Origin: Deltaproteobacteria bacterium RIFOXYA12_FULL_61_11
Lineage (GTDB): Bacteria > Bdellovibrionota_F > JAHFAK01 > YA12-FULL-61-11
DNA: 13,485 nt
Reading direction: 5' to 3'
Assembly: GCA_001799195.1 (NCBI GenBank)
Contig: MGSU01000083.1
Coordinates: forward strand, 1,088 to 14,572
Of the stretch, positions 1 through 13,485 are shown piece by piece; the stretch's first letter is position 1; each line of letters opens with the position of its first letter. The notes beneath the pieces were generated by a model. That model was given only the letters and a program-made list of their open reading frames with translations. It made no database searches and was not told the origin of the DNA. The position numbers were made by a program, and so were the translations under genes.

Positions 1-946
1 CCTCGGCCGACCCCTTGAGCACGGCGAGCCCGTGGTAGGTCTTGAAATAGCTGGTGAACAGTTCGGGCTGGAGCCCATGCCGGCGCATGATCCGTTCGTT
101 ACCGTGACAGTCGGCGCACAGGGCGGTGGAAACCAGAGCGTGGCTGGTCGCGGCCCCGGTTTCGCTCGGCCGGACGATGTCGTGTTCTCCGTGGCAATCG
201 CTGCAGGAGGGAGCGTCGTAAAAACCCCTGTCGATGGCTCGTTGATGGACGCTCAGCTTGAATTCATCCCTCTCGGTCCCATGGCATTGCCCGCAGGTAT
301 CGGCCATGGACTTTTTGTGGATAGGTGAACGTTCGTCCGCCTGGGGCACGATCAGGTGCCCGCCGTGACAGGTCACGCAGGTGGCGACTTCGCGATCTCC
401 CCCTCGAGCAAGGACCTTGCCGTGCACGCTCGCGCCGTAACGCGCGACGATGTCCCCCTGGCGCAAGCCGAGTAGTTCGGTCACCTCAGGCCGGGAATGG
501 CACTTCCCGCACGTTCCGACCACCCTGGTCCGATGCACCGGTGAGACCGGATCGGAGGACGGGAGGATATCGTGCCCCCCGCCATGGCAACTGAGGCAGG
601 TCGCGGTCTGGTTCCTGGCCGCGAACCGAGGTCGGGCATGGACCGAGGCTCCGTAGGCAACCTCGGCCTCCTCGTGGCAGGCCGCGCAGCGTACCTCCCC
701 GACGGCGGCTCCACTCTCGGCATGGTCGTCTTGAACCCCTGCGTGACAATCGGTACATGCGAGTTCTGCGTGGACCGAGGTGGCGAAGGCCGGAGAGATG
801 CGAGGAACCTCGCTCGCCTGATCCCGGGATGCATGGCATTCCCGACATTCCTCGGCCCGGCTCTCTATGGCCGAGGCCAGCACCAGGAACAAGAAGACGC
901 CGGCCGCGAGATTGCGAGTGGTGGACTCCGGGTTACGGGGCGGCAT
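1..946 (-). CDS. Multiheme cytochrome c, at least 9 hemes, C-terminus beyond the left edge
   Basis: This gene starts at the ATG at 944-946 and runs out of the window with 315 residues visible. A GGAGG-type ribosome binding site lies just upstream. The start overlaps the end of the preceding gene by 14 bases, so translation is probably coupled. Residues 1-31 form a signal peptide. Nine CXXCH motifs begin at Cys34, 64, 87, 117, 146, 190, 218, 248 and 277. Between them a pattern recurs: SVH, about a dozen residues, CXXCH-G, then HDI or HLI. These SVH and CHGxH histidines could supply distal heme ligands. Similar periplasmic multiheme proteins often end in, or sit next to, a cytochrome b-type membrane domain that exchanges electrons with quinones; whether this one does cannot be seen. 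The last visible residues (YHGLAVLKGSAE) begin another such unit, so at least one more heme is expected outside the window. The heme motifs are certain; the periplasmic electron-transfer role is inferred. Confidence 0.9.
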   Translation of the reverse strand, partial: MPPRNPESTTRNLAAGVFLFLVLASAIESRAEECRECHASRDQASEVPRISPAFATSVHAELACTDCHAGVQDDHAESGAAVGEVRCAACHEEAEVAYGASVHARPRFAARNQTATCLSCHGGGHDILPSSDPVSPVHRTRVVGTCGKCHSRPEVTELLGLRQGDIVARYGASVHGKVLARGGDREVATCVTCHGGHLIVPQADERSPIHKKSMADTCGQCHGTERDEFKLSVHQRAIDRGFYDAPSCSDCHGEHDIVRPSETGAATSHALVSTALCADCHGNERIMRRHGLQPELFTSYFKTYHGLAVLKGSAE

Positions 947-1799
947 GGCTCCCCCCTCCGTTCGAAGGCTGGGACCCGGGAAGGATCAGGTCGGAGTGAC
1001 AACGCAGGCAGAGCTCGTCCGCCGTTCCGTTCGCTCTCAGCATCGTCGCGCGGGGGCTGTTCCTTCGGGGAGAGAGGGAGGCGATCCTTCCCGCGGGACC
1101 GGTAAGGGGCTTCGTTCCGACGGTACGCCCCGCGGCTCCGGGGTGTGGAGTATGGCAGGTCGTGCAAGAGATGGTATTCCCCGGCCCCCTCGGAAGACCG
1201 TCTTTGTTCTCGGGGGTTGTCGCGGCAAGGTGCCGCGCCGACAACCCGTGTTCGGCGAGCCCGTGGCAACGGTCAGTACACTGTGTCGGTGACAACAGGA
1301 GGTTCTTCTCGGCGGACTTCGCCCGGTGGCAGGAGGTACAATCGCCCTTGCCGCCGTGCAGGAAGGGGGCTGGTGCGAGGTCCTCGTGGCACGAGAGGCA
1401 CGTTGCACCGATCGTGGCCTCGCGCAGCAGGGCGTGCGAAGAGGTCGAGCCGTGTGGCCGGTGACAGGCAAGGCAATCCTCGGCCACCGGTGGGTGTATC
1501 CCCTCCCTGTGGACCGTCTCGACGAGGTCGTCGTGACAGGCCAGACAGAGGGCCGTGCCGCCTCCCTCGGCGAGGTCGAAACGATGTCCGGCCTCGGGGG
1601 TCTGTCGGTGTTCGTTCACGTGACAGGCCGAGCACTCGCCTTCCTCGATCGGGGTGTGCAGGTGTGGCGAGGAGGAAACCTCGCGGTGGCAGGTTTTGCA
1701 GTCGGGGCCATCGGTGGCCGGTGCTGGCTCCTCGCCGGCCGACCAGGCGAGGAGGGACCAGACGGAAAGACCCAGCAGCAGGCCCAGGTCTCGCTTCAT
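933..1799 (-). CDS. Nonaheme cytochrome c with doubled-CXXCH motif, one CX3CH site
   Basis: I place the start at the ATG at 1797-1799 (288 residues). It overlaps the upstream stop as ATGA and opens directly into a signal peptide (MKRDLGLLLGLSVWSLLAWSA). An in-frame ATG 171 bases earlier adds only a low-quality Arg-rich leader. Heme motifs begin at Cys34, 56, 85, 109, 134, 154, 174, 212 and 264. Eight are CXXCH; the seventh is CTDRCH, a CX3CH variant. Residues 85-138 (CLACH, CLACHRPHGS, CLSCH) match the doubled-CXXCH pattern of a known multiheme family. Most distal-ligand candidates are the many histidines in the first 200 residues. The stretch around 220-260 is heme-free and basic. It is probably a periplasmic electron carrier in the conduit operon. 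The protein ends in a Gly/Ser-rich tail, and its stop lies inside the start region of the next gene. Confidence 0.88.
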   Translation of the reverse strand: MKRDLGLLLGLSVWSLLAWSAGEEPAPATDGPDCKTCHREVSSSPHLHTPIEEGECSACHVNEHRQTPEAGHRFDLAEGGGTALCLACHDDLVETVHREGIHPPVAEDCLACHRPHGSTSSHALLREATIGATCLSCHEDLAPAPFLHGGKGDCTSCHRAKSAEKNLLLSPTQCTDRCHGLAEHGLSARHLAATTPENKDGLPRGPGNTISCTTCHTPHPGAAGRTVGTKPLTGPAGRIASLSPRRNSPRATMLRANGTADELCLRCHSDLILPGSQPSNGGGSHAAP

Positions 1800-2125
1800 G
1801 CTCCACCCCCACTCCCGTTCTCGACCTCTACTCCGTTGGCGCCATGGCAGGAGGTGCAGGAGGCCTGCCCTTCTTCCTCGACAAGCCTTCGCACCCCGGC
1901 CAGGGCCGGTGAGGCCACGGTCCCCGGCGGATCGAGGTGCAGGTTCTTGCGCGGGTGACAGAGAAAACAATCCGCCTGGCTCCAGCCTTCACCGTGTTCG
2001 GACTCGACGAGCCGCACACCGCCGGGTCCATCGACCAGGTTGCCATACTCCTCGGCCGACGGTTCCTGACGCTCACAACCGAGCCCCAGCAAACAACCGA
2101 GCAAGCAGAGAATCCTCAGCGCCAT
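1796..2125 (-). CDS. Small diheme cytochrome c lipoprotein
   Basis: This 109-residue protein starts at the ATG at 2123-2125 behind a strong GGGAGGAG ribosome binding site. The start overlaps the preceding gene by 10 bases. The N-terminus (MALRILCLLGCLLGLGCERQ) is hydrophobic and ends in a Cys at position 17 that could be lipidated. The lipobox is imperfect, with Gly rather than Leu at -3, so lipidation is probable but not certain. There are two CXXCH motifs, CFLCH at 53-57 and CTSCH at 90-94. Few other histidines are present (positions 44 and 63), which is just enough for two distal ligands. The C-terminus is a short Gly-rich tail. I do not recognise a named family. Its size, anchor and position between larger cytochromes suggest a small relay or assembly partner held at a membrane. 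Confidence 0.82.
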   Translation of the reverse strand: MALRILCLLGCLLGLGCERQEPSAEEYGNLVDGPGGVRLVESEHGEGWSQADCFLCHPRKNLHLDPPGTVASPALAGVRRLVEEEGQASCTSCHGANGVEVENGSGGGA

Positions 2126-2724
2126 CTCGGCTCCTCCCGATGACAGTCGATGCAGAACGTCCTCTGGTGGCAGCGATCGCACCGGGACGGCGCGATGCGG
2201 GCTTCTATTGAATGGAGTTGGCGAAAATTGCGATCATGGACCCGTTGCTCGGCGGTACCCCTCTCGTGATGACAGCGATCGCAGGCATCGGGTTGGTGAC
2301 AGGCCCGGCACCGTTCGCCGTCGAGGCGCGCCATGCGGCCGTGCCGATGCTCGAAACGCCCGCGGTGCCATTCGGGCAGCAGCGGTTCGAGTTCCTGGTG
2401 ACAGGTCGTGCAACGCTGGGGTGCCCCCGCGGAGCCTCGGTCCTGATGACACGCGTGGCAAACCCCCGCCGGTACCCTGTCCTCGGTCTGGTCGCCGGAA
2501 ACGTCCTCGGGGCGCACCATGGGGTGGCACTGCAGACAGGTCACCCCGGTCTCGAGCAGGGAGGTGCGATGGCGAGCGTGGTCGAAACGCGCGGTGATGG
2601 CCTGGCGTTCCACGGGTGACACGCCGGTTCGTTGCCGCGGTACGAGACAGGACAGTCCCAACGCGAAAAACAGCAGGAACGGCCAGGGTCGGCGGAACAC
2701 CAGGTTCGAGCTCACGCGAAACAT
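2116..2724 (-). CDS. Heptaheme cytochrome c (periplasmic or membrane-anchored)
   Basis: The start is the ATG at 2722-2724, giving 202 residues. A GAGGA ribosome binding site lies 7 bases upstream, and the beta-barrel gene's stop is only 8 bases away. A longer in-frame reading to 2931 is a shadow that overlaps the barrel gene. The N-terminus has a hydrophobic segment (residues 12-28) that may be a signal peptide or an uncleaved anchor; Cys26 is a weak lipobox candidate. Seven CXXCH motifs begin at Cys63, 89, 105, 139, 148, 182 and 191. The FDHARH at 47-52 upstream of the first heme resembles the F-x-H-x-x-H ligand motif of class III cytochromes, and a similar FEHRH occurs before the fourth heme. 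Hemes 4-5 and 6-7 are very closely spaced (CRACH-x4-CDRCH and CDRCH-x4-CIDCH). Being encoded directly after the barrel, it is the best candidate for the periplasmic cytochrome that enters or docks at the barrel. That role is inferred. Confidence 0.87.
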   Translation of the reverse strand: MFRVSSNLVFRRPWPFLLFFALGLSCLVPRQRTGVSPVERQAITARFDHARHRTSLLETGVTCLQCHPMVRPEDVSGDQTEDRVPAGVCHACHQDRGSAGAPQRCTTCHQELEPLLPEWHRGRFEHRHGRMARLDGERCRACHQPDACDRCHHERGTAEQRVHDRNFRQLHSIEARIAPSRCDRCHQRTFCIDCHREEPRWR

Positions 2725-2732
2725 CGTCGTCC

Positions 2733-3974
2733 TCAACGCAGGTCGAGAGTCAGCAGCACCACCGCACCGAGGCTTCGGTGCACATCGGGATTGTCGGTGA
2801 CCTCGACCTGGAATCCCACATCTCCGGCACCGTGATCCCAAGTCGTTCCGAAGCGCAGCTCCGAAGCCCGACCCTCGACCCCGGTCACCTTCGAGTACCA
2901 GGCCAGGTGGCCGCGTTGACTGAGCCGCCACCGATCGGTCAGACGCTCCCGAGCATCGAACAGGAGAAGAGTCGCTTCTCCTCCCGGTCCCCGGCGCGCT
3001 CCGAGCCCTGCGGTCAGGCTGCAGGGCTCGTCCCCGGCAAGCAGGACAAGGTCGCTCGACCAGCCCCTTGCACTCCCGAAATCCCCCTCGGTGCTGGTCA
3101 GGGCTAACTCCTGGCGCACTTCCAGAGCAGGCCCGAGGCCGACCTGCACGCCTTCGACGAGGCGGTGTTCCCGACCGGACCGGAAGGCCTCGAGGAGGGT
3201 CAGGTCCTCGCCCTCCTGAGAGCGCCCCCCGGCATGCCGCTCGTAGCCCATGTCCAGACTGACCCGAGTACCGAGCTCCTGGACCAACCCCAGGGCGAGA
3301 TACTCGAGAAGCCGTTCCTCGAGGGCCGCGGTCGAGACGAGGTACAGTTCGGGCGCGTTCTCGAGGTACCAGGGCAAGAGGCGATGATCGACCGAGAGCA
3401 GGGTCGCTGCCTCCGCTTCTCCCGGCATCTCTCTGGCCAGGCCGACCGAGGTCTCGTGCAGCTCGCCGAGGGTGACAGCCCGGGCCCCGACCAGAGCATC
3501 CTTCGGCTCGAACCCGAGTGCTTCGGCGGGGCGGGAGAGACCCCCGACGACCTCGATATCGAGTTCCGGGCGTACGCGGTACCGGGCGGAACCCCCGTCG
3601 AGGATCAGCGGCAAACGGTAGGACCGCAAGACCTGCCGGCCCAAGGTCACCGCGAGGCGGTCACCGGCGAGCCGTTGCTCTGCGTGGAATTGGTACAGGC
3701 GCAGCTCGTGTTCGGGGTGCCAGTCGAGCATCGTGTTCTCGGAAGCTGCATTGAGGACCACGGACGTACCCGCCTGCTCCGCGCGTAGCCACAGCCGGTC
3801 CTCGCCCAACAGCTCGCTCTGGTCGAGCAGGCTGCGCCGGTAGAGGTTGACCGTGCTGAACTCACCGTCATAGGTGAGGGCGGCGGCACCCTGGGCAAGA
3901 CAGCAGCCAAGGAGATAGAGCCAGGCGGCCGTCCGCCGGTCCGCTCTACGCGGTCTTAGTGACAGTACCAGCAT
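2733..3974 (-). CDS. Putative outer-membrane beta-barrel protein of a porin-cytochrome conduit
   Basis: The chosen ATG at 3972-3974 gives 413 residues and overlaps the end of the 30-heme gene by 19 bases. Residues 1-32 look like a signal peptide: an Arg-rich n-region, the hydrophobic AAWLYLLGCCLAQ, then an AAA cleavage region. The mature part has no heme motif. It consists of short alternating polar/hydrophobic segments with charged turns (for example LYLVSTAALEERLLEYLALG and LRFGTTWDHGAGDVGFQVEV), as in transmembrane beta-barrels of about 400 residues. The final strand reads VVLLTLDLR and lacks the usual terminal aromatic residue, which is a little odd. In known porin-cytochrome systems (MtrB, OmbB and Ext-type barrels) such a barrel holds a periplasmic multiheme protein and contacts an outer one; here it lies between the 30-heme and 7-heme genes. 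Sequence alone does not assign it to a named barrel family, and a substrate porin remains possible. Confidence 0.72.
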   Translation of the reverse strand: MLVLSLRPRRADRRTAAWLYLLGCCLAQGAAALTYDGEFSTVNLYRRSLLDQSELLGEDRLWLRAEQAGTSVVLNAASENTMLDWHPEHELRLYQFHAEQRLAGDRLAVTLGRQVLRSYRLPLILDGGSARYRVRPELDIEVVGGLSRPAEALGFEPKDALVGARAVTLGELHETSVGLAREMPGEAEAATLLSVDHRLLPWYLENAPELYLVSTAALEERLLEYLALGLVQELGTRVSLDMGYERHAGGRSQEGEDLTLLEAFRSGREHRLVEGVQVGLGPALEVRQELALTSTEGDFGSARGWSSDLVLLAGDEPCSLTAGLGARRGPGGEATLLLFDARERLTDRWRLSQRGHLAWYSKVTGVEGRASELRFGTTWDHGAGDVGFQVEVTDNPDVHRSLGAVVLLTLDLR

Positions 3975-6295
3975 CGCTCGTCGTAGTTCCTCTGTTCGGC
4001 ATGACAGGTTCCGCATTCTTGCCCTGGGTGATCGGTATGTCCGACCGACCACCCCGCCGGATGGGGATAGCCGGCATGACACTCCGAGCAGGCCTGTTTG
4101 CCCTCGGTCGAAGCGAAATCAGCCCCGTGGCAACTCGTCGCACAGCGACTCACCTCGCCGGTCTCGCTGACGGCACGTCCGTGAGAAGCAGGCTCGGCCC
4201 AATCCGCTGGATGCGGATAGAGAGAATGGCAATCCCGGCAGCCGCGTCCGGCCCCCGCGAACCCCACGGAGCGGCCGAGGTCTTCTCCGTGACACGACGT
4301 GGCACACCCCGCGCTGCCGTGCTCGAGGACCTCACGTCGGTGGGCCTCAGCCCAACCCTGACTATGAGGATAGAGCGCATGACAGCCGGAGCAGGCGGCC
4401 TCTTGTTCGACTCCCTCTTCGCCGGCGTGGCAGCGCCCGCAGGCCGCGGCCTCGAGGTCCTCTGCCTCGAGCACCTCCGCGCCGTGCCGAGCGGCCTCTT
4501 CCCAGTCGGAACCGTGTGGATAAGCACTATGGCAAGTACGGCAGGAAACGCCCTCGAGGAGCCGGTCCCCTGCCGGTCCGTGGCACGAGTTTGTACAAGC
4601 CGCGGCTTCCGCTCCACGGCCGGAGGGACCGTGGTCGGAGAGCCATCCGGCGGGGTGGGGATAGGCGGCATGACAATCGCTGCACCGCTTCGGCGAGGCC
4701 TCTGCGCTCCGGTCGTGGCAGCTCCCACAGACCTGTGCGTCCGCCTGGGTTCTGCGTACTTCTCGGTACTCCGCTCCATGCACCCCGGGGGAACCCCATG
4801 TGGTTCCTAGGTGGGGAAAGGTCGGGTGGCAGGCAGCACAGGTGCGCCCGGGTTCTGTCCGGGAATACTCCGCTCCGTGGCAACTCGTCGCGCAGGCAGC
4901 GGCTCCTCCGCCGCGGCGATACGCCGCACCGTGTTCCCCCCTGTCCGACCAGCCCTCGGCATGGGGGAAACCCGGGTGACAGGTGGCGCAATCCCCGCTG
5001 GCGTCGCCCCCGGCACCGAGTTCGTGGCAAGTCCCGCAAGACGTCGCGATTGGGAGTCGCCCGTGCAAGGCAGGGTCCTCCCATCCTCGGGGATGAGGGT
5101 AGTCGGCATGACAAGAATGGCAATCCCCGGAGGCGGTCCCGGTGCCCTCGGTCGCATGACAGCGGGCACACTCGCTTTGGGCCGTCTCGGTTCCCGACCG
5201 GCCGTGCTCTTCCCCGTCGGCCCAGTTCTCCCGATGAGGATAACCAGCATGGCACGTGGCACAGTCTCCCGCCGACCTTCCCCCGGTTCCCGTGCGGTGA
5301 CAACCGGCGCATTGCGCTGTTCCGACCGAGAGGGCGCTCGCCCCGTGCTTGGCTGCTTCCGTCCATCCAGGGGCATGGGGGTAGAGTGCATGGCAATCGT
5401 TGCAGCTCCGCTGGTGTTCGGTTCGGCGCTCGAGGTCGGGACCATGGCAACTCGTTGCGCAGCTCTCCACCCCTCCGAGTTGACCGACCCGCTTCCCGTG
5501 CCCTCCCGCCTCGAACCACCCGGCAGGGTGCGGGTACTCGGGGTGGCAGGAGGTACATCGCCGGCCTTTGTCGAACTTTTGGGGATCTTCTCCGTGGCAC
5601 GAGTTCGAGCATCCCGTTCCCCGATCACCGGCACGTGCCGCAGCCCCGTGGACAGCAGGCTCCGCCCACCCCTTGAGATGGGGATAGTCGGCGTGGCAAT
5701 CGGCGCAATCCCCTGTTCTCCCGCCCGTGGCCCCATGGCAGGCAACGCAGCGCGCCGTGGGTTCCGTGGCCGCTGGACCGTGCTGGCTGGCCAGGCTCCA
5801 ACCCTGGGTGTGGGGATAGTCGGAGTGACAGCCGGTGCACCGGCCGGCAGTGCCGGCGACGAGAGGATCTTGATCATGACACGCGGCAGTGCACAGGAGG
5901 GAACCATTGTCCCGCACGAAACTCCCGTGGCGGCCGCGATCGATCCAGCCCTGGGTATGCGGATAGGTCCGATGACAGGAAGTACAACTCGTCCCGGCCC
6001 AACCTCCGTCGAGGTCTTCTCCGTGGCAGGTTCGGCACGTCTCGAGAGCCCCGGCTTCACCGCGTAGGACGAGGCCATGGGCACCTGCCCCGAAACCGTC
6101 GGGATGGGGGAAGATCGCGCTCGCTGCCGAGGAGGCATCCCCGGCAGGCGGGAGGAACTGGTCGGCGGGGAGTCCTCCCCCGCTGCACCCGAGCAGCAGG
6201 ACGCAACCCATCGCCAGGCTGCCGATGCCGAGTCGTACCCGGGCGGAGCATGAGCCCACGGATGCGCCGGAATGGCACACCTGTGCCTGTCTCAT
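3956..6295 (-). CDS. 30-heme repeat cytochrome c lipoprotein (15 tandem diheme units)
   Basis: From the ATG at 6293-6295 this is a 779-residue protein. The signal peptide ends in LLLGC with Cys37 as the lipidated residue, followed by a short Gly/Pro/Ser linker. From residue 62 to the last residue it is entirely repeats. Each unit of about 44-52 residues reads [Y/F]PHxxGW, HG, first heme motif, then CXXCH. Fifteen units give 30 heme sites: 23 CXXCH and 7 CX3CH. The protein ends exactly on its thirtieth motif (CWYCH). Each unit carries two extra conserved histidines (PH and HG), matching the two distal ligands needed for bis-His coordination. It leads the operon that encodes a beta-barrel and periplasmic cytochromes. 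I infer a surface or periplasm-spanning electron wire. The start is uncertain: the nearest AGGA is about 12 bases upstream. Longer in-frame ATGs exist (for example 6370) but lack a better ribosome binding site. Confidence 0.9.
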   Translation of the reverse strand: MRQAQVCHSGASVGSCSARVRLGIGSLAMGCVLLLGCSGGGLPADQFLPPAGDASSAASAIFPHPDGFGAGAHGLVLRGEAGALETCRTCHGEDLDGGWAGTSCTSCHRTYPHTQGWIDRGRHGSFVRDNGSLLCTAACHDQDPLVAGTAGRCTGCHSDYPHTQGWSLASQHGPAATEPTARCVACHGATGGRTGDCADCHADYPHLKGWAEPAVHGAAARAGDRGTGCSNSCHGEDPQKFDKGRRCTSCHPEYPHPAGWFEAGGHGKRVGQLGGVESCATSCHGPDLERRTEHQRSCNDCHALYPHAPGWTEAAKHGASALSVGTAQCAGCHRTGTGGRSAGDCATCHAGYPHRENWADGEEHGRSGTETAQSECARCHATEGTGTASGDCHSCHADYPHPRGWEDPALHGRLPIATSCGTCHELGAGGDASGDCATCHPGFPHAEGWSDRGEHGAAYRRGGGAAACATSCHGAEYSRTEPGRTCAACHPTFPHLGTTWGSPGVHGAEYREVRRTQADAQVCGSCHDRSAEASPKRCSDCHAAYPHPAGWLSDHGPSGRGAEAAACTNSCHGPAGDRLLEGVSCRTCHSAYPHGSDWEEAARHGAEVLEAEDLEAAACGRCHAGEEGVEQEAACSGCHALYPHSQGWAEAHRREVLEHGSAGCATSCHGEDLGRSVGFAGAGRGCRDCHSLYPHPADWAEPASHGRAVSETGEVSRCATSCHGADFASTEGKQACSECHAGYPHPAGWSVGHTDHPGQECGTCHAEQRNYDERCWYCH
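3959..6112 (-). repeat. Fifteen tandem diheme protein repeats, period 44-52 codons
   Basis: The repeat array fills the 30-heme gene. The anchor histidines of the [Y/F]PH motifs fall at residues 64, 113, 162, 206, 256, 307, 354, 401, 445, 495, 547, 594, 644, 695 and 745, a spacing of 44 to 52 residues. Conserved features per unit are [Y/F]PH, usually W four residues later, HG about 7-10 residues further on, a first heme motif that is CXXCH or CX3CH, and a second that is always CXXCH. Unit 12 has a small insertion before HG (AEAHRREVLEHG), and unit 15 replaces HG with GHTDH. On the plus strand the array shows as regularly spaced GTGGCA/ATGACA-type complements of CXXCH. The units have diverged too far for this to be a recent amplification. 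Confidence 0.93.
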
Positions 6296-6325: not shown

Positions 6326-6614
6326 GGACCACGACCCCTGCGGTCGGGATAGTTGCTCGTTATTGCTCATCTTATGAAAACACTCGTACAGCATCCGAGG
6401 TGGTACGAATCTTGTTATCGGGACGCACCCTGGAAATTCCGTGCCGGACTGACCCTCCCGGTACGGTAGTATCGTTCCGAAGCCGGCAACGGAGAGGAGA
6501 CGGTAGATGAGTTCGCGTCCAGAGGCAACTGTCTTTTCGATTTCTCCTCGCGACCCGTCAGCCGCGAGTGCAGGTCCGGCAGCACCATCGCTCTCATGCC
6601 TAGGAGGTCGTCGC
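6296..6614. promoter_or_regulatory. Divergent intergenic region between the two cytochrome transcription units
   Basis: These 319 bases separate the start codons of the 30-heme gene (minus) and the collagen-stalked cytochrome gene (plus), so promoters for both should lie here. I could not find a convincing -35/-10 pair for either. What is visible: the second 14-bp palindrome (6312-6325); a small hairpin with arms CGACC and GGTCG (6332-6336 and 6342-6346) that would sit in the minus transcript leader; and two good ribosome binding sites on the plus strand. These are AGGAGA at 6495-6500 before an in-frame ATG at 6507, and AGGAGG at 6602-6607 before the preferred ATG at 6615. No RNA gene is recognisable. 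Confidence 0.5.
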
Positions 6615-9600
6615 ATGTTCCGCACCATCCTGTTCGTCGCCGTTCTTCCACTTTGCTTCTTCTCCGGATGCATCCTCGACGACGACCCTGCTCCCCCCGA
6701 CGCCGAACCCGGGACCTCCGCTCCGGTCGCGATTTCGTCGGTCCTCGGCAACGGCTCCGCCGAGGATCGCTTCACCGACGGGCTCATCATCACCGGTCGG
6801 GGTTTCACCGCGGCGGCTCGGATCAATCTGCTCGACGAGCACGGTACCCTGGTCGCGGAATTGTCCCTGGTCTCGGTCGCCGAGGATCGTCTCGAGGCCG
6901 CGTTGCCCCTTGACCTCGCCGAGGGTAAATACATCGTTCAGGTCACCGAGGACGACGGTACCGACACCTTCGCCCTGACCATCCTGCGCGGCGAACGCGG
7001 ACCGGCCGGAACGAAAGGGGATTCCGGCGAACGTGGCCTGACCGGCCCGGTGGGGGCGCAAGGAGCCCAAGGCCCGCGCGGAGACCTCGGCCCCATGGGA
7101 GGACAAGGACCCATGGGTTCGCAAGGCCTGCCCGGAACCGTTGGTCCCACCGGAACCACGGGTGCGAATGGAATGGCCGGAGCGGCAGGTCCTGCAGGTC
7201 CGGCCGGAGAACCCGGGTCCTCGATCGTCTGGTTGGGCGAGCATGCCGAAGCCCCGGCGGAGCCGGCGGTGAACGAGGCCTATTACGATGCCAAGGACAA
7301 CGCCACGTACCTCTGGAACGGCTCCTCGTGGGACACCCTGGCCTCCGGTAGCTCCCCTCTCGAGACCTTCGGCGCCTATAGCGGTCACTTCGACACCGAG
7401 GCCGAGGCCTTCACCCATTGGGACGGAGAGGGCAGCATCCCGGCCGGTTGCGCAAAATGCCACAGCACCGCGGGGTATCTCTCCTTCCTCGGCGCCGACG
7501 GTACCGAGGCCGGGGTGATCGAAGCAGCCGCGCCGACCGGCCAGACCCTGACCTGTTTTACCTGCCACAGCGGCGCTGCCGTCGAACTCGACCACGTCCT
7601 GTTCCCCTCGGGGACGGTGGTCACTGACCTCGGTCCCGAGGCGCGTTGCATGACCTGTCACCAGGGCAGGGAGTCGACTACCACGGTCGACTCGGCCATT
7701 GCCTCGAAGAATCCGCAGGGTGAAGATGCGGTCACCGACGGACTGAGCTTCCGCTGTGTGCATTACCTCCCGGCCGGCGCGACCCTCTATGGTACGGCCA
7801 GCATGGGCGGGTACCAGTACGCGGGACGTACCTACGATACAAAATTCGCTCACGTGACCGACCGGGACTCCTGCGTCGAGTGCCACGATCAGCACACCCT
7901 GAAGGTCAAGACGGCGGCCTGCCTCGAATGCCATCCCGACCTCGACTATGAAGGAGGAGCCTACAGCTTCGCGAGCATCCGCATGACCAGTTCGAATGCC
8001 GACTATGACGGGGACGGAGATGTGGGCGAGGGCATCCACGGCGAAATCCTCACCCTGCGCGACGAGCTACTCGCGGGCCTCCGGGCGTATGTTTCCGCTC
8101 AGGGGCTCGAAGCGATCGGCTACAATGCCTCCTCGCACCCCTATTTCTTCGTCGACACCAACGGTAACGGCACGATCGATGCGACCGAGACCACCCGTTA
8201 CACCACCTTCACCCCGCGGCTGCTACGCGCTACCTATAACTATCAGTACACGATGAAAGACCTGGGCGGCTTCGCCCACAATGCCAAGTATGTGATCCAG
8301 CTCCTCATCGACAGCCTGGCCGACCTCGGCACAACCACCAACAGCCTGACGGCGAAGACCTTCGTGAGGAACGACCCGGGCGGCCACTTCGACGGTACGG
8401 CCGAGGGTTGGGCGCATTACCGGGATGGTAATTTCGGCAGCAGCGCCTGCAGCCGTTGTCACAGCGCCGACGGCTTCCTGTACTACACCGAACACTTCGA
8501 GAACCGGCCGGGACAGGTCCCTGCCCCGGCCATCAACGGGCTCTCGTGCGAGGCCTGCCACACCGGAGAGGCCTTTTCCGAGGGGGATGCTCCGCGCCGC
8601 TTCATCGAGAAGGTCGTTTTCCCCTCCGGGACAGAGCTGAGCCAGCTCGTCGCCGACGAGGAAGGTATCCTGGTCGAACCGGCGGTCCCGGACGATTCCT
8701 TCCTATGCTTGAGTTGCCACCAGGGACGTGAGTCCGGTCTCTCCCAGGAGACGGCGATCACCGAGGCTGCCCTCGAAGATGCCGACACGCTCTCGACCTC
8801 CCTGGCCTTCCGCAACGTCCACTACCTCGCCGCCGGCGCCGTGCGCTTCGGCGCCATCGCCAAGGGCGGGTACGAATACTCCGACAAACGCTACGACTAC
8901 GAATTCGGGCATGTCGAGGGAGTGACCCGCTGCACCGATTGCCATGCGGTCGATGCAACCGACCATGATTTCGCGCTCGATACCGCCACCTGTCTCGAGT
9001 GCCACGAGGGGACTCTCGCGACCTTCGATCCCGCCGAGCTGCGCATGACCTCGTCGATGGGGGTCGACTATGATGGTGACGGCGAGCTCACCGAAGGTAT
9101 CGCCGGAGAGATAGCAACCCTCGAGGCAGAGTTGCTCCTCGCGATGCAAGCCTATGCCGCCGGCAAGGGGGCGCCGATCGGCTATTACGGCGCCGGCTAT
9201 CCGTACTTCTTCAATGACACCAACGCCAATGGCGTGATCGACGCTCCGGCCGAGACCTCCCGCGCCAACGGGTACAAGAGCTTTACACCCCGTTTGGTCC
9301 GTGTCGCCTATAATTACCAGTTCTCGCACAAGGACCCGGGCGGGTATGCCCACAACGGTAAGTACCTGATCCAACTCCTGGTCGACAGCCTGGCTGATCT
9401 AGGAGTGACCGTCAACAGCTCGACCGCGGCCGCCTTCGAGCGCGATGACCTTGCTACGCACTTCAATGCCACGGCTGAGGGCTGGTGGCACTACCGCGAC
9501 AGCAGCTTCAAGGGCAGCAGTTGTAACAAGTGCCACAGCGCGGATGGGTTCAGTCACTTCGTGGCGACCTTCGAGACCCTTGCCTTTGCCGTACCGACCC

Positions 9601-10463
9601 CGAAGATGAACGGACTGCGCTGCGACACCTGCCACGACAACACGGCCTATGTAGAGGGGGATGCGCCGAGGAAATACGTCGAGAAGGTGATCTTCCCGAA
9701 CGACGTCGAACTCCTGAACGATCAGACCGACGACAGCTTCCTGTGCATGACCTGTCACCAGGGCAGAGAATCCGGTGCCGATGTCACCGCGCGGATCGCG
9801 GCCGATACCGACGGTTTGGACCTGTCCTTCCTCAACCCGCACTACCTGCCCGCGGGCGCGATCCTCCAGGGGGCTGTCGTGGGCATGGGGTTCCAGTACC
9901 CCGCGAAGATCTACGATACCGCCTTCGCCCACGCGGGCAGCAGTGCGACCGATCACCAGTGCGCCTCCTGCCACACGGTCGAGGCCGAGAACCACACCTT
10001 CGAGGTCGAGGTACAGGAGAGTTGCACGGGGTGCCATGACGAGGCAACCCCCGGTGACCCGGAGACCATCCGGAAGAACCGTGCCGCCGATTACGACGGC
10101 GACGGCAGCACGACCGAGGCACTCTCCGATGAACTCGAGGGGCTCGAGGAACACCTCTTGAACGAAATCAAGGCCTACGCCCTCGGAACTATCGGCACGG
10201 CCATCGCGTACGGCGAGAGTCATCCCTACTTCTTCGTGGACACCAATGGCAACGGAGCCGCCGATCCGGCAGAGATGACCAGCGCCAACGCCTATAAGAA
10301 ATTCGACGCGGCACTCCTTGAGGCGGCCTTCAACTACAAGCTCGTCAGCGCCGATCCAGGGGCTTGGGCGCACAACACCCTGTATTCCGGACAACTCCTC
10401 TTCGATTCGATCGAGGATCTATCCTCAGATGCTCCTAGCACCTACGGTCTGACCAGACCTTGA
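6615..10463 (+). CDS. Collagen-stalked 15-heme cytochrome c lipoprotein
   Basis: The 1282-residue product starts at the ATG at 6615, 7 bases after AGGAGG, and opens with a lipoprotein signal (MFRTILFVAVLPLCFFSGC, Cys19). Residues 38-123 resemble an IPT/TIG-type Ig-like fold (GLIITGRGF and a final KYIVQVTEDDGTDTFALTI). Residues 126-200 are 25 uninterrupted Gly-X-Y triplets. Residues 202-243 form a short WLGEH...YLWNGSSW segment like those after collagen stretches in surface and tail-fibre-like proteins, possibly a trimerisation cap. Three homologous modules follow (about 251-572, 586-930 and 944-1270), each with five CXXCH motifs: Cys279, 314, 345, 420, 436; 612, 645, 698, 773, 793; 970, 1003, 1044, 1116, 1137. 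Each module also has conserved non-heme His (HF, THW/HYR, HYLxAGA, F(A/G)H, AHN) and two EF-hand-like loops. I infer an extended, possibly trimeric, cell-surface electron-transfer protein. An alternative in-frame start at 6507 also has a good ribosome binding site. Confidence 0.93.
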   Translation: MFRTILFVAVLPLCFFSGCILDDDPAPPDAEPGTSAPVAISSVLGNGSAEDRFTDGLIITGRGFTAAARINLLDEHGTLVAELSLVSVAEDRLEAALPLDLAEGKYIVQVTEDDGTDTFALTILRGERGPAGTKGDSGERGLTGPVGAQGAQGPRGDLGPMGGQGPMGSQGLPGTVGPTGTTGANGMAGAAGPAGPAGEPGSSIVWLGEHAEAPAEPAVNEAYYDAKDNATYLWNGSSWDTLASGSSPLETFGAYSGHFDTEAEAFTHWDGEGSIPAGCAKCHSTAGYLSFLGADGTEAGVIEAAAPTGQTLTCFTCHSGAAVELDHVLFPSGTVVTDLGPEARCMTCHQGRESTTTVDSAIASKNPQGEDAVTDGLSFRCVHYLPAGATLYGTASMGGYQYAGRTYDTKFAHVTDRDSCVECHDQHTLKVKTAACLECHPDLDYEGGAYSFASIRMTSSNADYDGDGDVGEGIHGEILTLRDELLAGLRAYVSAQGLEAIGYNASSHPYFFVDTNGNGTIDATETTRYTTFTPRLLRATYNYQYTMKDLGGFAHNAKYVIQLLIDSLADLGTTTNSLTAKTFVRNDPGGHFDGTAEGWAHYRDGNFGSSACSRCHSADGFLYYTEHFENRPGQVPAPAINGLSCEACHTGEAFSEGDAPRRFIEKVVFPSGTELSQLVADEEGILVEPAVPDDSFLCLSCHQGRESGLSQETAITEAALEDADTLSTSLAFRNVHYLAAGAVRFGAIAKGGYEYSDKRYDYEFGHVEGVTRCTDCHAVDATDHDFALDTATCLECHEGTLATFDPAELRMTSSMGVDYDGDGELTEGIAGEIATLEAELLLAMQAYAAGKGAPIGYYGAGYPYFFNDTNANGVIDAPAETSRANGYKSFTPRLVRVAYNYQFSHKDPGGYAHNGKYLIQLLVDSLADLGVTVNSSTAAAFERDDLATHFNATAEGWWHYRDSSFKGSSCNKCHSADGFSHFVATFETLAFAVPTPKMNGLRCDTCHDNTAYVEGDAPRKYVEKVIFPNDVELLNDQTDDSFLCMTCHQGRESGADVTARIAADTDGLDLSFLNPHYLPAGAILQGAVVGMGFQYPAKIYDTAFAHAGSSATDHQCASCHTVEAENHTFEVEVQESCTGCHDEATPGDPETIRKNRAADYDGDGSTTEALSDELEGLEEHLLNEIKAYALGTIGTAIAYGESHPYFFVDTNGNGAADPAEMTSANAYKKFDAALLEAAFNYKLVSADPGAWAHNTLYSGQLLFDSIEDLSSDAPSTYGLTRP
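6990..7214 (+). repeat. Collagen-like Gly-X-Y repeat, 25 triplets
   Basis: Residues 126-200 of the 15-heme lipoprotein are perfect Gly-X-Y triplets (GER GPA GTK GDS GER GLT and so on to GEP), with no interruption. Bacterial collagen-like repeats form trimeric triple helices without hydroxyproline. At about 0.29 nm per residue, 75 residues would give a rod of roughly 20 nm, which could hold the heme modules off the membrane. The charged triplets (GER, GTK, GDS) lie at the N-terminal end and the Gly/Ala/Pro-rich ones at the C-terminal end. Confidence 0.92.
7365..8330 (+). repeat. Pentaheme module 1 of 3 in the collagen-stalked cytochrome
   Basis: Residues 251-572. It contains CAKCH, CFTCH, CMTCH, CVECH and CLECH. 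It shares landmarks with modules 2 and 3: GHFDTEAEAFTHW near the start, RCMTCHQGRES at the third heme, HYLPAGA, FAHV, the calcium-loop-like DYDGDGDVGEG and DTNGNGTIDATE, and a C-terminal FAHNAKYVIQLLIDSLADLG. This copy has a 12-residue spacer (KNPQGEDAVTDG) before the HYLPAGA motif. Confidence 0.9.
8370..9404 (+). repeat. Pentaheme module 2 of 3 in the collagen-stalked cytochrome
   Basis: Residues 586-930. It contains CSRCH, CEACH, CLSCH, CTDCH and CLECH. Shared landmarks are GHFDGTAEGWAHYRD, LCLSCHQGRESG, HYLAAGA, FGHV, DYDGDGELTEG, DTNANGVIDAPAE and YAHNGKYLIQLLVDSLADLG. It is closer to module 3 than to module 1 at its start (TAEGWxHYRD, CHSADGF, EGDAPR), suggesting that modules 2 and 3 derive from a later duplication. 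Confidence 0.9.
9444..10424 (+). repeat. Pentaheme module 3 of 3 in the collagen-stalked cytochrome
   Basis: Residues 944-1270. It contains CNKCH, CDTCH, CMTCH, CASCH and CTGCH. Landmarks are THFNATAEGWWHYRD, LCMTCHQGRESG, HYLPAGA, FAHA, DYDGDGSTTEA and DTNGNGAADPAE. Its C-terminal end (WAHNTLYSGQLLFDSIEDL) has diverged from the SLADLG ending of the other two, as expected for a terminal copy with no following module. Confidence 0.9.
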
Positions 10464-10556: not shown

Positions 10557-10958
10557 ATGAAGCTCACACTCACCATGTTCTTCTCCCTGCCGCTCCTCGC
10601 AGCGCTGTTCCTCTCCTACACCACGATCCTGATGGCCAAGACCGCGCCCAAGGACGTGATCGAGCTCGGGACCGCCGGGAAGAACGGTCCGGTCACCTTC
10701 AAACACTCCGAGCATATCGCCAAGCACAAGCTCGCCTGCTCCACCTGCCATCACGGCATCAAGACCGACGAGGAAGCCAAGGCCTGTTCCGCCTGCCACA
10801 AAACGGAGAAGGTCGAGAAAACCCCTTCGTACAAAGATGCCCTGCACAAGAACTGCAAAGACTGCCACAAGAAGTACAAAGAAGACGCCGCTGCCAAGGG
10901 CGTGAAACTCGACGCCCTCCCCACCCTCTGCAAGCATTGCCACAAGAAGGCGAAGTAA
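10557..10958 (+). CDS. Tetraheme class III cytochrome c3, periplasmic
   Basis: This is a 133-residue precursor with AGGAGG 8 bases before its ATG and a signal peptide ending near LMA-KTAP (residues 1-27). The mature part is about 106 residues, the usual size of tetraheme cytochrome c3. It has the family signature FKHSEH (48-53) before CSTCHH (61-66), then CSACH at 77-81, CKDCH at 100-104 and CKHCH at 125-129. The extra histidines H50, H53, H57, H66 and H97 are available as distal ligands. Cytochrome c3 is a soluble periplasmic shuttle that exchanges electrons with hydrogenases, formate dehydrogenases and membrane cytochromes. The mature protein is very lysine-rich (23 Lys), so its surface should be basic and suited to docking on acidic partners. 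It follows the 15-heme gene on the same strand after a hairpin, probably in the same transcription unit, and would supply electrons on the periplasmic side. Confidence 0.92.
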   Translation: MKLTLTMFFSLPLLAALFLSYTTILMAKTAPKDVIELGTAGKNGPVTFKHSEHIAKHKLACSTCHHGIKTDEEAKACSACHKTEKVEKTPSYKDALHKNCKDCHKKYKEDAAAKGVKLDALPTLCKHCHKKAK

Positions 10959-11028: not shown

Positions 11029-12033
11029 TCAATCGGGATCCGAACCGGAAACCCTTCGCAAGGTCCGATATTCGGGGCGGTCCCATCGGGTGGCCATTTC
11101 GTAGGTGTAGACGGGGATGCCGAGGCGTTCGGTGAGGTACTGGAAGGCCTGACTCTCACTGAAAGCGGGGAGTTCGGCCTCGAGCACCAGCACGTGGTTC
11201 ACGTCGGAGAGTTCCAGGGGACCCCATACCTGCGCCTCGAGGTACCCTTGAGGATAAGGTCGGGCTCGCAGCAAGGCATCCTCGAAGGTGCCGGCCAAGC
11301 AGAGCCGGTAATACTCTTCCAGGACCCCGGTCCTATACTTCTCTTCGTCGAAGGTCCACACCCCGAAGGATAACTGGATGGTCGGTTGGAAATGGGCCTG
11401 TACCAGGTCGAGGGAATCGCGATAGGTCCAGGTCGCCCGCTGTTTGACCTGTTCCTTGAAAACGAAGACGAGGTTCCCGTAATGGGCGGCATCGTGTCGG
11501 CGCCCACCGACTACGACCTCGCCGGTAAGGTCGAGGACGAGGTACTTCGGTCTGAGTTCATGGACCCGGTTCGAAGGGTCGGGGTTGTACTCCTCCTCGA
11601 GGCGCAGCAGGGCGAGATCGTCCTCAAGCAAGGCTCGTACCTCGGGTTTATCGAGCCCCCCGGTGCTGCCGGTCTGGTGGAGGTTGAGAAATCCCCTGGT
11701 CACATAACCGGAAAAACGTTGCGGGTCGGTCACAGCCTCGAGCTTGAGGTGCATGAGCAGGCGCGCATCCTTCTGTAGGTCGAAGTGGTGCACCGGCTCG
11801 GTTCTCTTCAATGGTCCGAGCTTGGGCCTCGTATCCTTGGCCCTCGTCAGGCGAAACACCCGTTCGACGAGGGCCTGGGCAAGGGCGTGAGTATCGTGGA
11901 GCTGGTAGAGTTCGGCAGGGACGGTCGCTCCGCGGTCGAGACCTGACAATTCGGGCACGGGCTCGAGCGGTGCGGCCTGGAGCAGGCTGCAGAGGAGCCC
12001 CAGCGCGAGGCCCAGCCCAGAGGTCGGACGCAC
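11029..12033 (-). CDS. Secreted protein of unknown function
   Basis: I do not recognise this family. I favour the GTG at 12031-12033 as the start: GGGAGG lies 8 bases upstream and the product (334 residues) opens directly into a signal peptide (RPTSGLGLALGLLCSLLQAA). An ATG at 12091-12093 would add a 20-residue hydrophilic leader behind a weaker ribosome binding site. There are no CXXCH motifs, no lipobox and no internal membrane segment. Visible features are conserved-looking segments VPAELYQLHDTHALAQALVE, YLVLDLTGEVVVGGRRHDAA and WTYRDSLDLVQAHFQP, rich in charged residues and probably a soluble alpha/beta periplasmic protein. It is convergent with the cytochrome c3 gene, 70 bases away, and divergent from the PAS gene, so it is probably its own transcription unit. 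A role in the cytochrome system is possible only by proximity. Confidence 0.7.
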   Translation of the reverse strand: MRPTSGLGLALGLLCSLLQAAPLEPVPELSGLDRGATVPAELYQLHDTHALAQALVERVFRLTRAKDTRPKLGPLKRTEPVHHFDLQKDARLLMHLKLEAVTDPQRFSGYVTRGFLNLHQTGSTGGLDKPEVRALLEDDLALLRLEEEYNPDPSNRVHELRPKYLVLDLTGEVVVGGRRHDAAHYGNLVFVFKEQVKQRATWTYRDSLDLVQAHFQPTIQLSFGVWTFDEEKYRTGVLEEYYRLCLAGTFEDALLRARPYPQGYLEAQVWGPLELSDVNHVLVLEAELPAFSESQAFQYLTERLGIPVYTYEMATRWDRPEYRTLRRVSGSDPD

Positions 12034-12230
12034 CCAGTTCACCTCCCAGCCTTTCCTCGAGGTTTGAGAACCCCCAGGCCTATCAAGAACCATGCCCGTG
12101 CGAGTCCCCTTTTTATTCAACAAGTTTGCGACCCTGTCGCCCTTGGGCTGCTGAGTGGATTGCAGCCTCCTCCTCCCTCTTGCTAGGATCTTCCTGCATG
12201 CATCGAAGCCCGAGCGAGGGATCCCACCTC

Positions 12231-12258
12231 TCGACAAATCCAGCCTCTCTGCTAGAGT
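12231..12258 (+). promoter_or_regulatory. Candidate sigma70-type promoter for the PAS gene
   Basis: TCGACA (12231-12236, five of six matches to TTGACA) and TAGAGT (12253-12258, four of six matches to TATAAT) are separated by 16 bases. Transcription would begin about 43 bases before the ribosome binding site-preceded ATG at 12308. This is a match by eye in GC-rich DNA. The rest of the divergent gap (12034-12230) shows a small GCGAC-CCT-GTCGC inverted repeat at 12128-12140 and nothing else I can interpret. Confidence 0.3.
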
Positions 12259-12307
12259 TCGCCCCCACGGGAGAGGACGTCCCTCCCGATGACGAGGAGA
12301 CACGGCG

Positions 12308-12640
12308 ATGGACCAACGCTGGGTAAAGGAATTCCCGGGTTCGATCGAAGTCTGCGACCGGCAGGGCATCCTGCTGGACATGAATGACCGGGCTGCCGAA
12401 CGGGAAGGCGGCCGACACCTCCTCGGTTCCAACATCCTCGATTGTCACCCGGAACCGGCCCGCGCGAAGCTCGAGGCCCTGCTCGCGGCCGGCCGACCCA
12501 ACGTCTACACCATCGAGAAGAAGGGGCAGAAGAAGCTGATCTACCAGGCCCCCTGGTTCCAGGGAGGTGAGTACCAGGGGTTCGTGGAACTCTCCCTGGT
12601 GCTCCCCGAGCAGTTGCCGCATTACGTCCGCAAAGGCTGA
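12308..12640 (+). CDS. Small single-domain PAS protein
   Basis: The 110-residue product starts at the ATG 7 bases after AGGAGA. It is a stand-alone PAS-like sensor domain: an N-terminal strand and turn (IEVCDRQGILLDMNDRAAE, residues 13-31), a GSNILDCHPEPA helix region (40-51), and C-terminal beta strands (VYTIEKKGQKKLIYQAPWF, 66-84; YQGFVELSLVLPEQLP, 89-104). The order matches PAS_4/PAS_9-like folds. There is no kinase, GGDEF or DNA-binding segment, so it must act through a partner or as a ligand-binding protein. The Cys-His pair at 46-47 (DCHPEP) is not a heme-attachment motif. There is no signal peptide, so it is cytoplasmic. Similar small PAS proteins are common in anaerobic proteobacteria, but I know of no assigned function. 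It converges on the membrane-protein gene 28 bases downstream. Confidence 0.82.
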   Translation: MDQRWVKEFPGSIEVCDRQGILLDMNDRAAEREGGRHLLGSNILDCHPEPARAKLEALLAAGRPNVYTIEKKGQKKLIYQAPWFQGGEYQGFVELSLVLPEQLPHYVRKG

Positions 12641-12668
12641 CCTCGCCGCCAACCCCACAGGGAGCTTA

Positions 12669-13485
12669 TCAACGGGGTGCTCTGGCCCGACTTTGCCTCC
12701 ATATTCCCCTCGCGGCAAGGCCCGCTCCCCCGGCACCCGTGACGACGCAAGCGGAGAGGAGAGCCATGGCAGCAATTCCTGCCGGACGTTCGAGGGTCAG
12801 TAGGGGCAGGGCCGCGATGGCAGCGCCCGTGCCGAGCCCGCCCAGACTCGCGCCTAACCCGACCACAAGGTAACGCACCCGCAGACTGCACCTCCTGCCG
12901 TAGCCGACCGTGCCTCCTACCGCGAGGAGCGCGAGGAAGAGCAGAGGGAAGGAAAGGGAGGGCGGCAGCATCGCCCCGAGGGGTAGCGTGGCGGGAACGA
13001 GGAGCAGGAACAAGACCTGGGAGAGCCTGGTGACAAGGCCGAGGGCGAGCGCGGCAAGCGCAAGCCACACCGCGAGCGGCAGGGCGAGGAAGCCGTCGTT
13101 GACGACCACCTCCAGTTCGTCGCGCCACCCCGGCTGTTCCAGGGAGATGGGCAGCACCTCCTCGCCCGGCTCGAAGACGAGGTGGAAGCTGCGGCCGCGG
13201 TACTCGATCCTGGTACGTAGGAGGGTCGGATGGGTGAAGCGGAAGACCAGGCCGTTGCGGTAGCGTAGACCAGCGGTCCGGCCGCACCGGTAAGTCCTCA
13301 GGACCTCGAGAACCTGCCCGACCTTGCCCTCCGCGGCCTGGGAGACCTCCTGGCGGGTGAGTTCGCAGGGTTCGAGGCGGTGGTACAGTCCGAGCTCGTC
13401 CCCGAGGAGCCGTTCCAGCGCGAGGCCCGCGCGTTCGTACTCTGCCGGTGAGAGCCGCCAGTCGCCGTCCCGGTCGAGGTCGGTG
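12669..13485 (-). CDS. Membrane protein with EF-hand-like loop and about five TM helices, N-terminus beyond the right edge
   Basis: The reading frame is open from the right edge of the window to the stop at 12669-12671, showing 271 residues without a start. The visible N-terminal part begins with an EF-hand-like calcium loop (DLDRDGDWRLSPAEYE). A soluble domain of about 110 residues follows, with beta-rich segments (LRYRNGLVFRFTH and RIEYRGRSFHLVFEPGEE). Then come five probable membrane helices, around GFLALPLAVWLALAALALGL, QVLFLLLVPATLPLGAML, LSFPLLFLALLAVGGTVG, VVGLGASLGGLGTGAAIAAL and AGIAAMALLSACVVTGAGGA. The C-terminus is short and basic. The order (extracytoplasmic calcium-loop domain, then membrane helices) recalls HupE/UreJ-like proteins, but I do not see their His-rich helix motif, so that link is weak. 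Function is unknown. Confidence 0.72.
   Translation of the reverse strand, partial: TDLDRDGDWRLSPAEYERAGLALERLLGDELGLYHRLEPCELTRQEVSQAAEGKVGQVLEVLRTYRCGRTAGLRYRNGLVFRFTHPTLLRTRIEYRGRSFHLVFEPGEEVLPISLEQPGWRDELEVVVNDGFLALPLAVWLALAALALGLVTRLSQVLFLLLVPATLPLGAMLPPSLSFPLLFLALLAVGGTVGYGRRCSLRVRYLVVGLGASLGGLGTGAAIAALPLLTLERPAGIAAMALLSACVVTGAGGAGLAARGIWRQSRARAPR

What the first reader, a model, noticed from the sequence alone, without database searches (positions are those of the whole stretch)
3956..6295. A lipoprotein made only of 15 tandem diheme units: a 30-heme modular electron wire
After the lipid anchor and a linker of about 25 residues, the whole protein is a repeat of [Y/F]PHxxGW, HG, CX2-3CH, CXXCH, ending exactly on the last heme motif. 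The counts agree: 15 units, 30 heme motifs, 15 PH histidines and 14 HG histidines plus a GHTDH variant in unit 15. That gives one extra conserved histidine per heme, as bis-His ligation requires. Known nanowire cytochromes (OmcS, OmcE, OmcZ) polymerise subunits of 4-8 hemes; here the polymer-like repetition is covalent within one chain. A uniform unit of this kind suggests a linear heme chain of fixed length.
Basis: partly seen in the sequence, partly recalled or inferred. Interest (0 to 1): 0.9.

Follow-up and report, generated by a model that had tools for sequence, protein, structure and literature searches.

The report
Modular 30-heme surface cytochrome wire
The gene encodes a lipid-anchored protein built only from 15 repeats that each hold two hemes, most likely a short electrical lead on an outer-membrane electron channel; the kind of protein is already known, but this repeat family changes its length by whole two-heme blocks and occurs in several bacterial phyla.

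Summary
The 779-aa protein (3956-6295, minus) has 23 CXXCH + 7 CX3CH = 30 heme motifs in 15 units of 37-52 aa; every cysteine of the mature protein is a heme cysteine or the lipobox cysteine. PH and HG histidines are invariant or nearly so across 50 five-unit segments from many phyla, as expected of distal ligands. The protein is not an isolate: a lipoprotein family with 6-39 hemes occurs in Deltaproteobacteria/Myxococcota-type MAGs, KSB1, Calditrichota and Ignavibacteria, beside a porin-like gene and a 7- to 14-heme cytochrome. Best reading: outer-membrane cytochrome of a porin-cytochrome (Pcc) conduit. 'Fixed length' is not supported: two members of one genus have 8 and 10 units, differing by two inserted diheme units. 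A covalent, repeat-built heme wire is prior art (PCC3, up to 85 hemes; GSU2210, 27 hemes; I. album Pcc). Structure prediction was inconclusive (pLDDT 65 and 48), so heme packing, linearity and reach are inferred. New here: a ligand-complete diheme module, its conserved operon and its length variation.

The parts
3956..6295 (-). 779-aa lipoprotein, 15 tandem diheme units, 30 heme motifs
6185..6295 (-). lipoprotein signal peptide with lipobox LLLGC; acylated Cys37, Ser at +2
   Evidence: sequence; sorting to the outer membrane inferred from +2 Ser
5966..6112 (-). diheme unit 1
5819..5965 (-). diheme unit 2 (CX3CH first)
5687..5818 (-). diheme unit 3
5537..5686 (-). diheme unit 4 (CX3CH first)
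5384..5536 (-). diheme unit 5 (CX3CH first)
5243..5383 (-). diheme unit 6
5102..5242 (-). diheme unit 7
4970..5101 (-). diheme unit 8
4820..4969 (-). diheme unit 9 (CX3CH first)
4664..4819 (-). diheme unit 10
4523..4663 (-). diheme unit 11 (CX3CH first)
4373..4522 (-). diheme unit 12
4220..4372 (-). diheme unit 13 (CX3CH first)
4070..4219 (-). diheme unit 14 (CX3CH first)
3959..4069 (-). diheme unit 15, GHTDH in place of HG; chain ends on CWYCH
2733..3974 (-). 413-aa porin-like protein (signal peptide, amphipathic beta pattern), no Pfam family; start overlaps the end of the 30-heme gene
   Evidence: position conserved in relatives
2116..2724 (-). 7-heme periplasmic cytochrome, ortholog next to the same gene pair in at least 12 other loci
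1796..2125 (-). small 2-heme lipoprotein, conserved in the operon
933..1799 (-). 9-heme paired-CXXCH cytochrome (8-heme counterparts in relatives)
2..946 (-). multiheme cytochrome (9 hemes in the part seen), runs off the window; 453 aa on the contig

Best explanation
The protein is the outer-membrane (most likely cell-surface) cytochrome of a porin-cytochrome electron conduit. Electrons from the quinone pool reach periplasmic cytochromes (the 9-, 7- and 2-heme proteins encoded beside it), cross the outer membrane through a cytochrome held in the porin-like protein, and enter a lipid-anchored chain of 30 bis-His hemes that carries them away from the membrane to a mineral, partner cell or other acceptor (or in the reverse direction). 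Each ~47-aa unit is a self-contained module: PH and HG histidines supply the distal ligands of its own two or of neighbouring hemes, so units can be added or lost without breaking ligation, and reach evolves in diheme steps. Shown: repeat structure, motif and His conservation, lipobox, conserved neighbourhood, unit-number change. Inferred: heme attachment, bis-His ligation, surface exposure, linear packing, direction of flow.
For: 30 motifs in 15 units, all mature Cys accounted for. In 50 aligned five-unit segments from different phyla, nearly all columns holding PH His, HG His and both CXXCH are invariant or at least 90% conserved. Conserved operon: lipoprotein - porin-like - 7-heme - 2-heme - 8-heme in deltaproteobacterial MAGs, and porin-like - 11/12/14-heme - lipoprotein in KSB1, Ignavibacteria and family f27; of 58 loci with such a lipoprotein, 34 have the 7-14-heme partner and 22 have both partner and porin-like gene within three genes, many others being cut by contig ends. 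The Ignavibacteria form (porin-like ~450 aa, 14-heme 400 aa, lipoprotein; L100, L108, L078) matches the published Pcc cluster of Ignavibacterium album (IALB_1839, 14-heme 400-aa IALB_1838, IALB_1837; PMC4245776). In L060, L069 and L071 a tetraheme cytochrome, a 4Fe-4S ferredoxin and NrfD lie next to the lipoprotein, in L060 also cytochrome b and Rieske, a quinone-side link. Unit insertion between congeners. 25-26 residues per heme, like PCC3 wires (median 26, PMC5566968).
Against: No reliable structure: AlphaFold2 pLDDT 65.2 (five units) and 47.9 (full length), no Foldseek match. The porin-like protein has no Pfam or PDB profile match; its barrel nature rests on a signal peptide, position and amphipathicity (z about 2-3 against shuffles). 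Surface orientation and expression are untested.
Confidence: 0.7

Rival explanations
1. Periplasm-spanning wire: the lipoprotein is anchored in the inner leaflet of the outer membrane and reaches through the periplasm towards the inner membrane, feeding the conduit from inside.
For: Lipoproteins need an extra step to reach the surface and no sequence here decides it; PCC3 has 21-27-heme periplasmic cytochromes thought to span the periplasm (PMC10734462) and GSU1996/GSU2210 are periplasmic monomeric heme wires (PMC10138318).
Against: The operon already holds several non-wire periplasmic cytochromes (7, 2, 8-9 hemes). Unit number is highly variable (6-39 hemes), whereas periplasm width is roughly constant. 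Some members carry C-terminal Big_5 Ig-like domains, more typical of surface proteins.
Confidence: 0.17
2. Electron capacitor: the chain mainly stores about 30 electrons (or buffers redox state) rather than conducting over distance; heme geometry need not be linear.
For: Storage was proposed for PCC3 and periplasmic multiheme cytochromes (PMC10734462, PMC10138318); unit number varies freely.
Against: The operon context is a trans-membrane conduit, so conduction is at least part of the role; storage and conduction are not exclusive.
Confidence: 0.08
3. Polymerising nanowire subunit like OmcS/OmcE/OmcZ.
For: Multiheme, exported.
Against: A lipid anchor should hinder secretion of a free filament; ligand count is already complete within one chain; no sequence relation to the polymeric nanowires in a profile search of PDB.
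Confidence: 0.03

Closest known systems
PCC3 extracellular multiheme cytochrome (Sideroxydans, Leptothrix, Gallionellaceae; PMC5566968, PMC10734462)
   Same: Single chain, 10-85 hemes, repeats each with at least one heme motif, about 26 residues per heme, variable heme number, encoded with a porin, wire hypothesis already proposed and AF2 models long and linear.
   Different: [quoted passage not shown] here the partner has 7 (or 11-14) hemes, the porin-like protein is about 413 aa, and no such inner-membrane gene is seen. Sequence homology between the two wires was not tested.
Pcc cluster of Ignavibacterium album (IALB_1839-1837; PMC4245776)
   Same: Porin, 14-heme 400-aa periplasmic cytochrome and outer-membrane cytochrome with atypical motifs; Ignavibacteria loci of this family have the same gene set and sizes.
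   Different: Ignavibacteria members have 9-13 hemes and fewer repeats; the window has 30 hemes and a 7-heme partner. IALB_1837 itself was not aligned.
Geobacter GSU1996 (12 hemes, PDB 3OV0) and GSU2210 (27 hemes)
   Same: Monomeric chain of repeated heme modules, described as a nanowire of hemes; hemes 3-5 A edge to edge in GSU1996 (PMC10138318).
   Different: Triheme c7 modules with one His-Met heme each and periplasmic; here diheme modules with two extra His and a lipid anchor. Sequence similarity is marginal (E 0.05).
OmcS / OmcE / OmcZ filaments
   Same: Chain of c-type hemes serving extracellular electron transfer.
   Different: Polymers of 4-8-heme subunits; no sequence relation found.

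Membership tests
[quoted passage not shown]
   A 413-aa heme-free protein with signal peptide and amphipathic beta pattern is adjacent and conserved in position, but matches no Pfam or PDB family.
Porin-cytochrome (Pcc) conduit, general class (PMC4245776) | Periplasmic multiheme cytochrome gene in the cluster | tested here: met
   7-heme protein conserved across loci; profile matches MtrA (6r2q_A, E 4.5e-8) and c7 chains (3ov0, E 1.2e-18).
Porin-cytochrome (Pcc) conduit, general class (PMC4245776) | Outer-membrane multiheme cytochrome in the cluster | tested here: met
   Lipobox plus 30 heme motifs; outer-membrane location inferred.
PCC3 | Extracellular MHC with very many hemes and repeats, low residue-per-heme ratio | tested here: met
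   30 hemes, 26 aa per heme (compare).
PCC3 | Periplasmic MHC with about 21-27 hemes | tested here: not met
   Neighbouring cytochromes have 7, 2, 9 and 9 hemes.
PCC3 | Conserved inner-membrane protein, ~300 aa, five TM helices, two HX13H motifs | tested here: not met
   No such gene seen among the ORFs between 1 and 6500; the contig ends 1.1 kb beyond the window, so it could lie elsewhere.
PCC3 | Sequence homology of the wire protein | not tested
   No PCC3 reference sequence could be fetched by name.
GSU1996-type c7 nanowire domains (TIGR04257) | Triheme c7 domain repeats above the curated cut-off | tested here: not met
   20.5 bits against a cut-off of 40; units are diheme.
OmcS/OmcE/OmcZ polymeric nanowires | Sequence relation to the solved filament subunits | tested here: not met
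   Profile A5 against PDB lists none of them at E 0.1.
OmcS/OmcE/OmcZ polymeric nanowires | Polymerises into filaments | not testable with these tools
   Needs cryo-EM.
bis-His multiheme cytochrome c | One conserved extra His per heme | tested here: met
   15 PH + 14 HG + GHTDH for 30 hemes; columns invariant or nearly so across phyla.
bis-His multiheme cytochrome c | His positioned at distal face in a structure | tested here: inconclusive
   AF2 pLDDT 65/48, no coordinates available.

The most novel reading that the evidence does not exclude
A genetically extensible, non-polymerising molecular wire: each diheme unit is ligand-complete, so the wire grows or shrinks by whole units within a genus, and the reach of an otherwise conserved outer-membrane conduit is set by unit number (3 to about 20 units) in several phyla.
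Probability: 0.35. Interest if true: 0.75.

Novelty: new variant of a known kind. Interest (0 to 1): 0.5.

Why it matters
Large repeat-built cytochromes have been postulated as covalent wires since 2017 but lack a structure. A family whose repeat is short, regular, ligand-complete and present in natural versions from 3 to about 20 units is a ready-made length series: conductance against heme number could be measured on natural homologs or trimmed versions without redesign. It also extends porin-cytochrome conduits to deltaproteobacterial, KSB1, Calditrichota and related uncultured lineages.

Tried and rejected
AlphaFold2 on a five-unit segment with a 50-row register-aligned alignment (pLDDT 65.2) and on the full chain with 30 relatives (pLDDT 47.9): too weak to place hemes; Foldseek and VIA found nothing. 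A first segment alignment with overlapping windows went out of register and was discarded (replaced). Recent tandem duplication as origin: rejected, units 33-58% identical and no DNA array. Assembly artefact or chance: rejected by shuffles and relatives. Plasmid-borne relatives: none. Unit-by-unit correspondence between the window protein and its relatives L048/L049/L056/L069 was looked for and is not visible, so positional orthology of units is not claimed. PCC3 membership: rejected on gene content. A first count of neighbours was superseded because some wire proteins match the partner profile.
Full report
Observation. The minus-strand ORF 3956-6295 encodes 779 aa: a lipoprotein signal peptide (lipobox LLLGC, Cys37), 24 linker residues and then nothing but 15 units of 37-52 aa beginning with [YF]PH. 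Each unit has two heme motifs; the first is CXXCH or CX3CH, the second always CXXCH; total 23 + 7 = 30. The last residue of the chain is the histidine of motif 30. All 61 cysteines of the mature chain are accounted for: 60 heme, 1 lipid anchor. Of its 34 other histidines 15 are PH, 14 HG and 2 lie in the GHTDH of unit 15. Shuffled compositions reach at most 6 motifs.

Not a recent repeat. Units share 33-58% protein identity and the DNA shows no tandem array. The pattern has been kept by selection, not by recent duplication.

Relatives. The window's phylum has only two genomes in the held set, so the organism is from a poorly sampled lineage. A first relative was found in G026 (8 units, 39% identity over half the chain), and its family holds many more. 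A degenerate pattern for CxxCHxx[YF]PHxxGW gave 69 stretches in named genomes, nearly all of them multiheme lipoproteins: Deltaproteobacteria, Myxococcota, Oligoflexia, KSB1, Calditrichota, Ignavibacteria and Bacteroidetes MAGs; a few, such as Akkermansia and Clostridiales, did not give a multiheme ORF and are chance matches. Heme numbers run from 6 to 39 (L048: 39, L056: 33, L105: 29, L049: 25). Regex counts of units are lower bounds, since some relatives have irregular units.

Ligands. Fifty five-unit segments were aligned in register. In nearly all units the PH histidine, the HG histidine and both CXXCH are invariant or at least 90% conserved. Conservation of exactly two extra His per two hemes, across phyla and with otherwise about 35% identity, is what bis-His ligation predicts. 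It is not proof of geometry.

Neighbourhood. Downstream of the 30-heme gene, with overlapping ends, come a 413-aa porin-like protein, a 7-heme cytochrome, a 2-heme lipoprotein, a 9-heme paired-CXXCH cytochrome and another multiheme cytochrome. The 7-heme protein has orthologs next to the same kind of gene pair in L045, L046, L047, L056, L061, L069, L070, L071, L072, L086, L088, L090 and L097, and the 2-heme lipoprotein in eight of these. KSB1, Ignavibacteria and family f27 have the order porin-like, 11/12/14-heme, lipoprotein. Of 58 loci, 34 have the 7-14-heme partner and 22 both it and a porin-like gene within three genes; many contigs end too soon. The 7-heme profile matches MtrA, the cytochrome inside the MtrB barrel, at E 4.5e-8 and GSU1996 at 1.2e-18. 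The porin-like protein matches no Pfam or PDB profile; its amphipathic beta pattern exceeds shuffles by z 2-3, in relatives up to 4-6. In L060, L069 and L071 a tetraheme cytochrome, 4Fe-4S ferredoxin and NrfD (and in L060 cytochrome b and Rieske) lie beside the lipoprotein; the window's genome has NrfD genes on other contigs.

Length is not fixed. G026 and G100 are in one genus. Their lipoproteins have 8 and 10 units; units 1-6 correspond one to one, L004 units 9-10 to L002 units 7-8, and L004 units 7-8 are extra. So the chain gains or loses whole diheme units. Between the window protein and its more distant relatives no unit-by-unit correspondence is visible.

Structure. AlphaFold2 without heme gave pLDDT 65.2 for five units and 47.9 for the full chain, no Foldseek hit. 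The five-unit model suggests, per unit, a loop with PH, a helix with HG, a helix on CXXCH-1 and a short turn on CXXCH-2, nothing more. Any length estimate (some 20-30 nm if packed like known heme wires) is inference from known heme spacings, not a result.

Prior art. PCC3 clusters (PMC5566968) have extracellular cytochromes with a median of 34 and up to 85 heme motifs, repeat regions with at least one heme each, 26 residues per heme, and were proposed as wires in 2017; PMC10734462 reports 10-35 hemes and long linear AF2 models. GSU1996 and GSU2210 are monomeric repeat wires with 12 and 27 hemes (PMC10138318). The Pcc cluster of Ignavibacterium album, with a porin, a 400-aa 14-heme cytochrome and an outer-membrane cytochrome with atypical motifs (PMC4245776), fits the Ignavibacteria form seen here. 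Thus the kind of thing is known; this diheme family, its deltaproteobacterial 7-heme operon and its unit-wise length change were not found described in the papers searched, which cover open-access literature only.

Conclusion. A porin-cytochrome conduit whose outer-membrane cytochrome is a modular wire of diheme units. Shown: anatomy, conservation, neighbourhood, length variation. Inferred: heme loading, ligation, surface location, conduction. Verdict: real, well-read observation; interpretation right in kind, wrong on fixed length, and less novel than claimed.

Noticed in passing
window 6507-10463 (+): 1318-aa lipoprotein, divergent from the 30-heme gene: 26 collagen-like GXY triplets (res 162-239) followed by three multiheme modules (15 CXXCH) with DYDGDG/DTNGNG loops that look calcium-binding; a 39% identical homolog lies in L087 beside a short member of the wire family. 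A collagen-stalked cytochrome may be as unusual as the wire.
   Followed up: partly
L098:956-8000: Three adjacent wire genes with 17, 28 and at least 23 hemes in one Deltaproteobacteria MAG.
   Followed up: no
L061:333-7887: Two wire genes (19 and 23 hemes) flank one porin-like/7-heme/2-heme set.
   Followed up: no
L088:2205-4694: Wire-family protein with C-terminal Big_5 Ig-like domains after the heme units.
   Followed up: no
window 10557-10958 (+): 133-aa four-heme class III (c3-like) cytochrome, next to the collagen-like cytochrome.
   Followed up: no
window 11029-13484 (-): Two proteins, one apparently membrane-spanning, with no convincing family match.
   Followed up: no
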